Assembly: GCF_045679555.1 (NCBI RefSeq)
Contig: NC_092110.1
Span: 3,983,390-4,047,389 of the forward strand
From: Salvelinus alpinus
Lineage: Eukaryota > Chordata > Actinopteri > Salmoniformes > Salmonidae
Reading direction: 5' to 3'
Length of the DNA stretch: 64,000 nucleotides
Below the pieces are notes generated by a model that saw only the letters and a list, made by a program, of their open reading frames with translations, made no database searches and was not told where the DNA came from. The translations under genes and the position numbers were made by a program. Of the stretch, positions 15,701-21,700 are shown in pieces (position 1 is the first letter of the stretch; every line of letters starts with the position of its first letter).

Positions 15701-18700
15701 GTTCAAAGAACTTGTGTCCCTCAATGAAGGACTGTTGGGAATGATGGTGAGATAAGCATGGAATTATCATGAGGATAAAATTGAAACAATATCCATTGAA
15801 AATTAGCTTGGTGGTTCCAGATCTGTTTGTGCTGTCTTACCAACACCTATAGTCATTTTCATGGCAAACATGAGGTTGGCTAAACAACACAAATAGACCA
15901 CCAGGCTACCACAAACCAGTAACAACTAATGAAAGGCCAACTCACAATGTAGCTCTGCAGCAGTAGTTCCACGGAGTCACGGCGGCCATATTTGATGATC
16001 CAGGACTTGAGCTTGGACTCAGCCAGGATGAGAAACGCCATCAGACGGTACTTCATCTCCCAGAATTCCAGTTTGATCAGGTGGGCATGAGATGATGTGG
16101 ACACATAGTTGAACCTGTTTGACAAAATACAAAATCAATATTAACATTCTTATCAAACTGATCAATATCAGTCTTATTTAAGTAATGTCATATTGTCCCT
16201 GATCTGTTTGTGTTTTCTTGTCAACTCATGGGTTGACAACGACCGTAGCAGTTGGCAAGACAGCACAAACAGATCAGGGATCAGGCTAATATTGTCCAGA
16301 GACATCCATAGATGTGTTACAGTATTAACACGGATGTAGAGGTGACCGAAGGATGACTAACCGCTCGGCCATGTCTTGGAGCTGTTCAGAGGGGACAGGG
16401 ACCCCGTTCACAGATCTGTCTCTGTGGATCTGCTGGAACGTCTGCTGGTGGGATTCCAAGTTCTTCAGTACCTCCTAAAACACATATCCACATACATGCA
16501 TGCTGAAATAAAAAAACTTGTTGAATCATTTAGACTAGACACTGGTGCAACATCAGGACTTTGTCATCTTTTCTTATATGACCAACAAAACCAAGAATTT
16601 TGAGACTTGCTGTACCTTCTAACAACGCCTATCCAATGATTGTTTTGCAACAGTACCTGTATATATTATGAGATTTGCTCTTGCTGAATACCTTGTGCTG
16701 TTCCAGCTTCCTGTGGATCACATTGGCTGTCTCTTCATGGGCTTGTTGGATAGGAATCTCCTCTCTCAGGGCGATCTCAGCTCGATGCAGCCAGGCTCCG
16801 ATCACCCCCAGTGGGCCAGGCAACGACTTATCCAGATGGATGTGCCAGTCCAGGAGCTAGCATAGGCAAATAGTACATGTCCAAAGACTTTGAGCAGGTG
16901 CTGGATAAAAAAAAATGCAAAGTCTGCAAAATGTGGCAAAAATTGCGATCTATGCTCCCATGTGGTTTGTTAGTGATGCTACTTCGACCACTCGGGTCTT
17001 CATCACGTTTCAGTCCAGGAGCTGCAACAGCCACCCATTACAGCAAGAACAATCAGCACAATCAAGGCATTAGCATTAACCACGCTGTTTAAAAAGCAGG
17101 TGGTGATTAAAAAAGGTTTCCACATGTTCTCAAGCATCTACTCCAGTGGATGAGCACAGTGCTGTGCTACTCCAGTCCACAGTCCATATAGGCTGGGGAC
17201 ACTCTATCAAGTGAACAAAACCCTTTCTGTTCCCCTCTCTCCAAAACTCTCATGCCCTCTTAATGAGCGCTCCTTCAAAAGCTTGCGCCTCACTGAACAC
17301 TCATTCAGTTTATTACGATAGCTATCTGGGCTCACATTCTGCAATGCAAGTCTCAGTCTAACTACTAAACACAAAGCAAATGAAAATGAGTTGGCGGACA
17401 AAAATAACAATCTCTCAATGACAAAGGTTACAGTCTATTTATAATGGTCTCTGTGGGCCGGTACGCTCTCTAATCCAGAACTACAGTAGACTTGATCTGT
17501 GTCCGTGAAATCGGCCCTTTTGAGTCTGGCCCATAGATTGTGTGTACTCTTGGGCTGGTTGTGCAGTAGCCTGGTGGACTATCTTTGTAAATAAGAGTTG
17601 ACTGAAGCTGTCACGTTCCTGACCTGTTTTCTGTTTAGTTTTGTGTGTTAGTTGGTCAGGACGTGAGTTTGGGTGGGCATTCTATGTTGTCTGTTTCTAT
17701 GTTGGTTTAGGGTTGCCTGGTATGGCTCTCAATTGGAGGCAGGTGTTTGGCGTTCCTCTAATTGAGAGTCATATTTAGGTAGGCTGTTCACAAGGTTTGT
17801 TTGTGGGTGGTTGTCTCCTGTGTCTGTGTCGATGTTTGCACCATACGGGACTGTGTACGGTTTGTTCGGTTTGTGTAGTCTTATGTCCTATTCGTGCGTT
17901 CTTCTTGTTTTATGTGAGTTCTTCGTATAGGTTTGTCTACACCGTTTGTTATTTTTGTTAGTTTACTCAAGTTCGTGTTTTCGTTTAATAAATATGTGTT
18001 CAAACTCCACTGCGCCTTGGTTCGATCAATACTCCTCCTTTTCGGTAGAAGAGGAGGAGGACCGCCGTTACAGAACCACCCACCAATCCAGAGCCAAGCA
18101 GCGTAATTTGGAGCAACGGGCAAGTATACAGGACTTGTGGAGTTGGGAGCAAATATTTAACGGAGAAGGACCATGGGCTAAAGTAAATCACCGTCCATGG
18201 GAACGGCTGGAGGCAGCTCGGAGAGCGGAGGAAAATAGAGAGAGGAACCGGCGTTATGAGGGGACGCGTCTTGCACGGAAGCCCGAAAAGCCCGTGAGTA
18301 ACTCCCAAAAATTTCTTGGGGGGGGGCTAAGGGGTAGTGGGCCTAGGGCAGGTAGGAGACCTGCGCCCACTTCCCAGGCTAACCGTGGAGAGCGGGAGTA
18401 CGGGCAGACACCGTGTTACGCAGTAGAGCGCACGGTGTCTCCTGTACGTGTGCATAGCCCGGTGCGGGTTATTCCTCCTCCCCGCACTGGTAGGGCTAGA
18501 TTGGGCATTGAGCCAGGTGTCATGAGGCCGGCTCAACGCGTCTGGTCTCCAGTGCGTCTCCTCGGGCCGGCATACATGGCACCTGCCTTACGCATGGTTT
18601 CCCCGGTTCGCCTACATAGCCCGGTGCGGGTTATTCCACCTCCCCGCACTGGTCGGGCGACCGGGAGCATTCAACCAGGTAAGGTTGGGCAGGCTCAATG

Positions 18701-21700
18701 CTCAAGAGAGCCAGTACGCCTGCACGGTCCGGTATTTCCGGCGCCACCTCCCCGCCCCAGCCTAGTACCTACAGTGCCTACACTACGCACTAGGCTACCA
18801 GTGCGTTTCCAGAGCCCTGTTCCTCCTCCACGCACTCTCCCTATAGTGCGTGTATCCAGTTCGGTGCCTCCAGTTCCGGCACCACGCACTAAGCCTCCTG
18901 TGCGTCTCCAGAGCCCTGTACACACTGTATCTTCTCCCCCTACTAACCCTGATGTGCTTGTCCTCAGCCCGGTGTCACCAGTGCCGGTACCTTGCATCAG
19001 GTATAGAGTGGGCTTTGAGAGTACAGTGTGCCCTGTCCCTGCTCCCCGCATTAGTAGGAAGGTGCTTATCCTTAGCCCGGTGCCTCCAGTTCCGGCACCA
19101 CGCACCAGGTCTACAGTGCGCCGTATCCGGCCAGAGCCATCCGTCTCACCAGCGCCATCTGAGCCATCCGTCTCCCCAGCGCCATCTGAGCCATCCGTCT
19201 CCCCAGCGCCATCTGAGCCATCCGTCTCCCCAGCGCCATCTGAGCCATCCGTCTCCCCAGCGCCGTCTGAGCCATCCGTCTGCCATGAGCCTGCAAAGCC
19301 GCCCGTCTGCCATGAGCCTGCTAAGCCGCCCGTCTGCCATGAGCCTACAGAGCCGTCCGCCAGACAGGAGCCGCTAGAGCCGCCCGCCAGACAGGAGCCG
19401 CTAGAGCCGTCCGTCAGACAGGATCTGCCAGAGCCGCCAACCAGACAGGATCTGCCAGAGCCGCCAACCAGACAGGATCTGCCAGAGCCGCCAACCAGAC
19501 AGGATCTGCCAGAGCCGCCAACCAGACAGGATCTGCCAGAGCCGCCAACCAGACAGGATCTGCCAGAGCCGCCAACCAGACAGGATCTGCCAGAGCCGCC
19601 AGCCAGACAGGATCTGCCAGAGCCGTCAGCCTGCCATGAGCGTCCAGAGCCGTCAGCCTGCCATGAGCGTCCAGAGCCGTCAGCCTGCCATGAGCGTCCA
19701 GAGCCGTCAGCCTGCCATGAGCGTCCAGAGCCGTCAGCCTGCCATGAGCGTCCAGAGCCGTCAGCCTGCCATGAGCGTCCAGAGCCGTCAGTCAGCCATG
19801 AGCTGTCCCTCAGCCAGAAGCGGCTAGTAATTCAGAACTGCCCCTCAGTCCAGAGCTGTCTCTCTGTCCGGAGCTGCCCTTCAGTCCGGAGTTGCCCCTC
19901 TATCCTGAGCTACCTCTTTATCCTGAGCTACCTTTCTCTCCTGAGCTATCCCTATGTCCTGAGCTACCTTGTCCCAGAGCTGTCCTTGATTCTGGTGTTG
20001 CCCCTAAATTTAGGTGGGGTTATTTGGAGGGTGGTCATTGTGGGGAGGATACGGAAGCGGGGATTGATTATGGTGGGGTGGGAACCACGCCCGGAGCCTA
20101 AGCCACCACCGTGGTCAGATGCCCACCCAGACCCTCCCCTGGACTTTTTAGTGATGCGTTCGGAGTACGCATCTTGAGGGGGGGGGTTATGTCACGTTCC
20201 TGACCTGTTTTCTGTTTAGTTTTGTGTGTTAGTTGGTCAGGACGTGAGTTTGGGTGGGCATTCTATGTTGTCTGTTTCTATGTTGGTTTAGGGTTGCCTG
20301 GTATGGCTCTCAATTGGAGGCAGGTGTTTGGCGTTCCTCTAATTGAGAGTCATATTTAGGTAGGCTGTTCACAAGGTTTGTTTGTGGGTGGTTGTCTCCT
20401 GTGTCAGTGTTTGTCGCACCATACGGGACTGTTACGGTTTGTTCATTTCATGTAGGCTATTTTTCCCTGTTCGTGCGTTCTCGTGTTTATGTATGTTCGT
20501 CGTTCAGGTCTGTCTACTTTCGTTTTGTTATTTTGTATCATTTTCAAGTATAGTTCGTTTTCGTGTTTGTTCGTTTTGTTTATTTAAAATAAAATTCATC
20601 ATGTATTCACAACCCGCTGCGCCTTGGTTCGATCACTACTCCTCCTCTTCTTATGAAGAGAGAGAGGAACTCCGTTACAGAAGCAGTATGGGATCAGGCT
20701 AGTTGTCCAGGGGTCCATAGACAGCAATACACTGACTCACCCTGATAGAGACACGTTCCCACGCTTGTTTGACCAGGGCCTGGTCTACAGACAGCTTCCC
20801 ATCCCTGTGCACCGGCTGCAGCAGAGGCTCTGTCTGTTTCTTCTTTATTTCATACTGCACACGGAAACTCTTGAAGCCCTGGAGCAAAGTAGAAATATGA
20901 GTATTAGAGATGTTACATTCACATTGAGTATATAACACATAGGAATGTAGAGCTCAGTCAAATATGGGCCTGTTCTTAATAATCTTTTCCTTGATTTTTA
21001 GTGCCCTCTACCCACATCCTTTTTAAAACGTCAGCGAGGACATGAAGATACAAGAAATTGATGAAGGATTATTGAGAAAGAGTCATGGTGTTTACGAAGC
21101 TCTGTCTCTTCTCTCTACACGTAGTATGATGTACGTTACCTCGTGACCTGGAACTTAATATACCGTAACAATAGCCAGCTACATGTAGCATGAGATTTGG
21201 TTCCAATCACCTGGTACTTGTTGGTCAGGTTGCTCTCTGCCCCCTGGTCACCAGGTATTGTCTGTCAGATTGCCGTCTGCCCCCTGGTCACCTGGTACTA
21301 ACCTGGTACTTGTCGGTCAGGTTGCCCTCTGACCCCTGGACTCGCAGCACGTCCCTCTCCAGTTGATCCAGCCACACCTTCAGCTCTCTCAGAACCTTAC
21401 GCTCTTCTCTCTGGGAGTCAATTAACACACAGCATTCAGATGACACATAATATTCAGGTAATGCAATGCACCATTATTCATTCTCTCTCAACCCCGACAT
21501 AATTCTCAACAAACTACATACAGTGAAACCACTCCTACCAAAACCTTCCAAATAGATTTCCAGATTTCCACAGCAAGCACAATACAATTCAAAGCAAAAT
21601 AAGAATCCCTGATGAGTCTATGTATTCAGTGACAACATACCTCAAGCATTTGCTCAATATCTTGAGGACCATACTATCCAGGGAAGAAAGCCACACGAAG

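What the first reader, a model, noticed from the sequence alone, without database searches (positions are those of the whole stretch)
17609..20679. LTR element whose only gene is a nonapeptide-repeat protein that starts inside the LTR
Bounded by LTRs, a 5-bp duplication and a purine tract, yet it lacks gag and pol. One 727-codon frame fills the interior. Its start codon and first about 26 codons are inside the 5' LTR, and the 3' LTR repeats that start (APWFDHYSS). The protein has three arrays of Glu-Pro nonapeptides encoded by 27-bp units in perfect register, with no stop. Maintenance of the frame through minisatellite expansion hints at selection or very recent age. I know of no described family with this arrangement, but I could not search.
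Basis: partly seen in the sequence, partly recalled or inferred. Interest (0 to 1): 0.75.

Follow-up and report, generated by a model that had tools for sequence, protein, structure and literature searches.

The report
Self-primed jumping gene with own protein
This is one copy of a very numerous fish retrotransposon family that lacks the usual replication genes, appears to start its own copying by pairing its RNA's front end with a site just inside, probably borrows enzymes from a sushi-type element, and yet keeps a reading frame of its own, not matched to any family searched, whose first third shows natural selection.

Summary
The element lies at 17609-20679: LTRs of 464 and 490 bp, a GAAGC duplication, a G-rich tract and one 727-codon frame starting inside the 5' LTR. 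It is one of thousands: 3,205 exact tract-LTR junctions against 0 in the reversed control. Of 19 elements compared, 16 have LTR pairs with at most five mismatches.

The ten bases after the LTR are complementary to the predicted RNA start, 31 nt below a TATTTA box. The pairing survives in diverged copies and once by compensatory change. Sushi-type gag elements in this genome share the geometry, the TGTCACG LTR start, the tract and a 5-bp duplication. So it is probably a non-autonomous, self-primed passenger of the Tf1/sushi group.

No gag or pol was recognised in the gene. Codons 113-245 are constrained (dN/dS 0.30; neutral simulation 0.67-0.97). The nonapeptide arrays show no consistent constraint. 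Many copies are broken: 13 of 19, ten of these at a G-run of variable length. The protein's role is inferred: a Gag-like RNA-binding helper.

The parts
17604..17608 (.). Target-site duplication, GAAGC (left copy)
   Evidence: 17 of 19 elements have equal 5-bp flanks
17609..18072 (+). 5' LTR (464 bp), TGTCACG...CGTTACA
17772..17777 (+). TATTTA, TATA-like box 31 nt before the predicted RNA start
   Evidence: same spacing in L074, a sushi-gag element
17803..17812 (+). Predicted start of R and self-primer, GTGGGTGGTT, exact complement of the PBS
17832..17930 (+). Upstream ORF of 32 codons in the predicted 5' UTR (may hinder translation of the main ORF)
17987..17992 (+). AATAAA, one base before the start codon; near the LTR end, as published for Sushi LTRs
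   Evidence: PMC3601003 section 12
17994..20177 (+). Main ORF, 727 codons, starts inside the 5' LTR
17994..18317 (+). N-terminal domain (A.W ... EEEE.RYRTTHQ.R.KQR ... W[TS]W ... G[KE]G ... KFLGGG) conserved across diverged subfamilies
18074..18083 (+). Primer-binding site AACCACCCAC, one base after the LTR; also codes for part of R-T-T-H
18318..18326 (+). Internal G9 run; length varies between copies and decides whether the two parts of the ORF are in phase
18330..18728 (+). Basic Arg/Pro-rich segment with SPVR repeats (segment pI 12.0); strongest purifying selection
18729..19124 (+). Proline-rich segment; stops avoided but amino acids weakly or not constrained
19134..19805 (+). 27-bp arrays coding Glu-Pro nonapeptides; no consistent amino-acid constraint
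19833..19970 (+). 18-bp array; among its units the best-conserved frame (LPLSPE) is not the frame of the ORF
20176..20186 (+). Polypurine tract GAGGGGGGGGG, followed by TTA and the 3' LTR
   Evidence: sushi counterpart in L079
20190..20679 (+). 3' LTR (490 bp); first 216 bases identical to the 5' LTR, the rest of another subfamily
20588..20593 (+). AATAAA of the 3' LTR
20680..20684 (.). Target-site duplication, GAAGC (right copy)

Best explanation
The element is one copy of a large family of non-autonomous Ty3/Gypsy-type LTR retrotransposons that uses the Tf1/sushi way of copying. Transcription starts at about 17803. The first ten bases of the RNA fold onto the site just after the LTR and prime reverse transcription, so no tRNA is needed (inferred from complementarity, position and covariation). 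Reverse transcriptase and integrase come in trans from sushi-type elements of the same genome, which share its LTR start, purine tract, duplication length and priming geometry (shared signals shown; mobilisation inferred). The element keeps its own ORF. Its first 245 or so codons would make a protein that matches no family searched (Pfam, PDB): a charged Trp-containing N-terminal domain that begins in the LTR and runs through the PBS, followed by a basic Arg/Pro-rich segment, both showing purifying selection. The likeliest role is a cis-acting, Gag-like RNA-binding helper that gets its own RNA packaged or copied (inferred, weak). The nonapeptide arrays are a loosely constrained tail. The G-run mutates so often, and other frame breaks are so common, that many copies cannot make the whole protein.
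For: LTR pair, duplication and tract. PBS-R complement of 10 nt. In 51 PBS sites all ten bases pair (G-U allowed) in 39 and at least nine in 46; in those 46 the distance to the LTR end varies from 182 to 307 nt, while the printed contexts show a CATA-type box about 31-32 nt before the pairing. In the 30 loci chosen by PBS alone, the R side pairs at nine or more bases in 26 (counted by hand). PBS T with R A in 8 sites, PBS C with R G in 37. Sushi-gag elements: 11 of 12 have an 11-nt self-complement at the same offset after ACA|G, and 11 of 11 with a mapped LTR start begin TGTCACG; tract GAGGGGGGGTAC|TGTCACG and a GTGAC duplication in one copy. LTR ends fit the published Sushi integrase motifs TGTYANR / CNTNACA (PMC3601003 passage). 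Generic tract-LTR junction 7,733 times against 6 in control. 30 of 30 loci chosen by the U5-PBS 21-mer carry this family's interior within the 1.5 kb read. Selection: segment 18330-18728 dN/dS 0.30 in frame, 1.56 and 1.36 out of frame, 1 stop in 5,730 codons, against neutral 0.67-0.97 and 12-42 stops. N-terminal domain 0.65 (LTR part) and 0.54 (interior) against 0.76-1.25 in shifted frames. 101 of 150 best protein hits have an open frame of 600 or more.
Against: No RNA start, transcript or peptide was seen. The 10-nt complement alone is not rare in a GT-rich LTR: 458 of 20,000 simulated LTRs, 28 of 8,641 other window 14-mers. The compensatory change probably happened once, and three PBS-T sites pair only by wobble. 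The LTR ends fit the published motifs of another fish Gypsy clade, rGmr1 (TGTNANR / CGTNACA), just as well, so that test does not single out sushi. Beyond their ends the LTRs are not alike, so the partner may be another element. 13 of 19 frames are broken. Of the ten broken at the G-run, six are open for 663-730 codons behind it but four break again after 118-360. In segment 18330-18728, 19 of 21 alignment gaps break the frame; over 18330-19124 it is 35 of 47. A cruder test of the N region gave only 0.70 in frame against 0.75 and 1.12 (two diverged modules misaligned). Three upstream ATGs precede the ORF. Arrays and C-terminus show no consistent amino-acid constraint. Protein hits were ranked by similarity, which favours intact frames.
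Confidence: 0.67

Rival explanations
1. The ORF has no function; it is open because copies are young and the sequence is poor in stops. The element is an ordinary non-autonomous LTR element (LARD-like).
For: 16 of 19 LTR pairs differ by at most five mismatches. 13 of 19 frames are broken, and frame-breaking gaps outnumber in-frame ones (19 of 21 in segment 18330-18728). Arrays and C-terminus lack consistent constraint. Segment 18729-19124 has dN/dS 0.75, inside the neutral range 0.58-0.80.
Against: Segment 18330-18728 has dN/dS 0.30 and 1 stop against neutral 0.67-0.97 and 12-42 stops. The N-terminal domain is kept between subfamilies 42-82% identical to the window copy.
Confidence: 0.18
2. 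The ORF is a rearranged gag or pol piece of a sushi-type element, diverged beyond recognition (a TR-GAG-like element).
For: Same termini and priming geometry as sushi elements. A gag-only element able to move is known in plants (PMC8704663 passages).
Against: No Pfam hit in the ORF; only hits at E 0.045 and 0.049 for one member each of the N-terminal alignment; PDB best E 0.72; profile comparison with the first ~106 residues of sushi gag gives probability 0.2%. Sushi pol was not compared directly.
Confidence: 0.1
3. The ORF is a captured host gene carried by the element.
For: No retroelement homology found.
Against: In the 35 of 56 sequences where a start was recognised, a similar start (A.W motif) lies in the LTR, which points to growth inside the element; the script looked for starts only there. 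No host homolog could be sought among thousands of copies.
Confidence: 0.05

Closest known systems
[quoted passage not shown]
   Same: Self-priming geometry, LTR start, AATAAA near the LTR end, purine tract, and 5-bp duplication seen in one copy of the same genome
   Different: No gag, protease, reverse transcriptase or integrase recognised; ORF starts in the LTR rather than 17-19 nt after it as in the 12 sushi copies read here
TR-GAG elements of plants
   Same: LTR element with a single ORF, dependent on others for enzymes
   Different: Their ORF is a recognisable GAG of an autonomous relative (PMC8704663 passages); here no Gag homology was found
LARD and TRIM elements
   Same: Non-autonomous, with LTRs, PBS and tract
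   Different: TRIMs are under 1 kb with a tRNA-type PBS (PMC6934838 passage); LARDs, as recalled, lack a conserved ORF

Membership tests
LTR retrotransposon | Paired LTRs beginning TG and ending CA with target-site duplication | tested here: met
   equal 5-bp flanks in 17 of 19
LTR retrotransposon | Purine tract directly before the 3' LTR | tested here: met
Tf1/sushi group | PBS complementary to the 5' end of the element's own RNA | tested here: inconclusive
   Complementarity met; RNA start predicted, not measured; PBS not compared with fish tRNAs
Tf1/sushi group | LTR ends fitting Sushi integrase motifs | tested here: met
   TGTCACG / CGTTACA fit TGTYANR / CNTNACA, but also the rGmr1 motifs; same first 7 bases as 11 of 11 sushi-gag copies
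Tf1/sushi group | Encodes sushi-type gag and pol (DUF4939 gag, RT, IN) | tested here: not met
   No Pfam hit in the ORF; so it works like a sushi element but is not filed as an autonomous member
TR-GAG | Single ORF encoding GAG | tested here: not met
   (sequence tests only; fold not tested)
TRIM | Under 1 kb, no coding capacity | tested here: not met
   3,071 bp, ORF with constrained part
LARD | Large non-autonomous element without a conserved ORF (as recalled) | tested here: not met
   Constrained segment 18330-18728

The most novel reading that the evidence does not exclude
A retrotransposon that gave up gag and pol but evolved its own replication protein, with the start codon in the LTR and the self-priming site inside the coding sequence. 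The protein would favour its own RNA in the partner's particles, so that the family outnumbers the sushi type sampled here about twentyfold (3,205 against 153 exact junctions), and a slippery G-run would act as a switch between a short and a long product.
Probability: 0.25. Interest if true: 0.82.

Novelty: new variant of a known kind. Interest (0 to 1): 0.6.

Why it matters
Non-autonomous elements are usually thought to survive by signals alone. A non-autonomous family that keeps a constrained reading frame of its own, matched to no family searched here, makes it testable whether a passenger element can evolve a private replication factor. The family is abundant in the genome (at least 3,205 tract-LTR junctions), so it also bears on annotation: its ORFs may be mistaken for proline-rich host genes (inference). 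The covarying PBS-R pairs offer a natural test of self-priming in a vertebrate.

Tried and rejected
Bacterial, phage and viral collections gave nothing useful. An 18-mer of the LTR hit 2 bacterial contigs (taken as chance) and 0 viral contigs. BLAST found no phage match. 377 plasmids matched; the 20 listed matched mainly the repeat arrays, at 68-72% identity; I take these as compositional.

tRNA priming was not tested against tRNA sequences; I set it aside because the PBS fits the element's own RNA. Assembly noise as the main cause of G-run variation was set aside, because the tract before the 3' LTR is 8 G long in 18 of 19 elements while the internal run is 7 to 11; noise is not excluded. In-frame 27-bp units were dropped as evidence. 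Left open: an internal purine tract for second-strand priming at 18318-18326. No structure prediction was run.

Paper searches showed no description of this family in the titles and abstract starts listed (one search found 0 papers; lists are cut at 15 or 20); Repbase could not be searched. Of papers I saw passages of PMC10886601, PMC6317226, PMC4600332, PMC3601003 (with section 12), PMC6934838 and PMC8704663; the rest only as listings.

Selection tests use the window as one reference or all pairs, not a tree, so copies are not independent; the frame controls and simulation use the same data. Rows dropped: matches under 150 columns (49 of 55 loci kept for the middle, 21 for the N region), under 100 (46 and 42 of 55 kept); copies without a recognisable start or G-run (35 coding starts from 56 sequences). 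The print-out was cut at 6,000 characters, so part of that comparison was not seen. In one search the second site of L040 is probably not an LTR site, and L036-L065 were chosen by their PBS, so only their R side tests the pairing. L028 also loses LTR identity at position 218, but what follows is unlike an LTR, so I took it as truncated and did not count it as a mosaic. In one search one of the 150 lengths was left out; one search has all 150. On checking I lowered the main confidence from 0.70 to 0.67 because of the frame-breaking gaps and second breaks.
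Full report
What is there. The window contains an LTR element at 17609-20679. The LTRs begin TGTCACG and end CGTTACA, are flanked by GAAGC on both sides, and the 3' LTR follows a G-rich tract. One 727-codon ORF starts at 17994, one base after an AATAAA inside the 5' LTR, and ends at 20177 at the start of the tract. The other two + frames of the interior have longest open stretches of 176 and 99 codons, and one minus frame has 378. Pfam finds nothing in the ORF at E up to 1.

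A large family. The window lies in a held genome of 2.37 Gb. The 5' LTR has 4,473 first-look candidates, of which 40 were scored. The 21-mer across LTR end and PBS occurs 1,436 times against 0 for the reversed control, and the tract-LTR junction occurs 3,205 times against 0. I compared 19 elements with two LTRs. In 16 the two LTRs differ by at most five mismatches, in nine of these by none. Flanks are equal in 17 of 19; one exception (L011) lies in a tandem and one (L024) differs by one base. These were picked as best matches to this LTR, so they lean young. Thirty loci chosen by the 21-mer (the first listed, all on one contig) are more diverged (LTR match 71-89% where found), and all 30 carry the family's interior in the 1.5 kb read downstream.

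How it probably copies itself. The ten bases at 18074-18083 (AACCACCCAC), one base after the LTR, are the exact complement of 17803-17812, which lies 31 nt after TATTTA. The match alone could be luck: 458 of 20,000 first-order simulations of the LTR, and 28 of 8,641 other 14-mers of the window, do as well. Four further facts make luck unlikely. First, of 51 PBS sites, 39 pair at all ten bases (G-U allowed) and 46 at nine or more. In the 30 loci chosen by PBS the R side pairs at nine or more bases in 26. In the 46 sites the distance to the LTR end varies from 182 to 307 nt. Second, in the printed contexts of those 46 sites a CATA-type box stands about 31-32 nt before the pairing. Third, where PBS base 3 is T, its partner is A in 8 of 11 sites and G (wobble) in 3; where it is C, the partner is G in 37 of 40. 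This probably reflects one event inherited by a subfamily, and it costs the protein a Thr-to-Ile change. Fourth, sushi-type elements in the same genome have the same layout. Self-priming was first demonstrated for Tf1 and is described for the Tf1/Sushi group (passages of PMC4600332 and PMC6317226).

The probable partner. Searching for DUF4939, which I recall as an N-terminal Gag domain of sushi-type elements, gave 3,997 candidates, 150 scored. I read 1.6 kb at the 5' end of 12. In 11 of 12 an 11-nt self-complement starts at the same offset after ACA|G; ten share one sequence and one (L074) has another, with TATTTA 31 nt before it; L067 has none there. Where the LTR start could be mapped (11 of 11) it is TGTCACG. 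One copy, read at both ends, has a GTGAC duplication and the tract GAGGGGGGGTAC|TGTCACG. Both element types fit the Sushi integrase motifs TGTYANR and CNTNACA of PMC3601003 (passage); the present LTR fits the rGmr1 motifs of the same table equally well, so this does not single out sushi. The generic junction occurs 7,733 times against 6 in the control; 153 are of the sampled sushi type and 3,205 of the present one. Among the gag hits listed on contig C1 below 38 Mb, 3 of 3 have such a junction 2.6-3.9 kb downstream. Beyond the ends I saw no LTR resemblance in the part that was printed (a 52-bp match in L075 lies outside its LTR), so the true partner may be another member of this clade.

The gene. 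The N-terminal domain is recognisable across diverged subfamilies and begins in the LTR in the 35 of 56 sequences where a start was recognised (the script looked only there). Between copies, dN/dS is 0.65 in its LTR part (1.25 and 0.76 in the shifted frames) and 0.54 in the rest (0.93 and 1.07). A cruder comparison with the window alone gave 0.70 against 0.75 and 1.12. The next segment, 18330-18728, is strongly basic and Arg/Pro-rich (segment pI 12.0). It gives dN/dS 0.30, or 0.35 with CpG changes masked, against 1.56 and 1.36 in the other frames, with 1 stop in 5,730 codons. A context-matched neutral simulation gives 0.67-0.97 and 12-42 stops. From 18729 to 19124 stops are avoided (1 against a neutral 4-21) but dN/dS is 0.75 against a neutral 0.58-0.80; with CpG changes masked it is 0.61 against 0.72 and 0.97 in the other frames. 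The main 27-bp array gives 1.54 in the ORF frame, a small first array 0.46; among units of the 18-bp array another frame is better conserved (0.40 against 0.89). The last stretch, 19989-20174, gives 0.84. The N-terminal domain has only Pfam hits at E 0.045 and worse, no PDB hit better than E 0.72, and no profile match to the first ~106 residues of sushi gag.

Damage, and the G-run. At 18318-18326 nine Gs join the two parts of the ORF. The run is 7 to 11 long in 18 elements (nine in 8 of them; in L023 it was not found), while the tract before the 3' LTR is 8 in 18 of 19. Of the 13 broken frames of 19, ten break at this run; behind it six are open for 663-730 codons, and four break again after 118-360. 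The other three (L013, L016, L023) break elsewhere. Over 18330-18728, 19 of 21 alignment gaps are not multiples of three. So single copies are often damaged, while substitutions still show the frame: I read this as selection on source lineages and free decay of their products. In 49 runs found in all loci, 17 are multiples of three. Copying slippage is the simplest cause of run variation; a functional switch is possible but unproven.

Mosaic LTR pairs. In three elements with intact duplications (window, L025, L030) the LTRs are identical to position 216-221 and then differ strongly. The predicted R start is position 195 and the stretch behind it is much alike in the ten LTRs printed. This fits R-U5 taken from two different RNAs during copying, with the joint at or near the U3/R border. 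U3 differs by only 0-3 bases in nine of the ten LTRs printed (ungapped), so gene conversion is not excluded. For the window copy the LTR pair therefore gives no clean age; its U3 parts are identical.

What remains inferred: the RNA start, the use of sushi enzymes, that the protein is made, and what it does. Against translation, three upstream ATGs lie in the predicted leader.

Verdict. A real, numerous, probably self-primed non-autonomous LTR family of the Tf1/sushi kind with a partly constrained private ORF: a new variant of a known kind.

Noticed in passing
17609-18072 versus 20190-20679; also L025 and L030: LTR pairs identical in U3 but of different subfamilies in R-U5, with intact 5-bp duplications: a possible trace of template switching between two packaged RNAs.
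   Followed up: partly
18318-18326: Internal G-run found in most copies yet variable in length, resembling the tract before the 3' LTR; could be a second priming tract or a slippage site.
   Followed up: partly
52524-52577 (+) and 54063-54116 (-): Two UnaL2-type LINE 3' ends (Rfam RF00436).
   Followed up: no
L079 1-141 (minus strand): In the sushi copy the sequence before the tract appears, read by eye, to run on in frame through the tract into the 3' LTR; two copies of the present family (L020, L024) end their ORF in a like way.
   Followed up: no
L011 504-685 and 729-1192: A partial LTR and a full LTR in tandem with a tract between them, as if two elements shared an LTR region.
   Followed up: no
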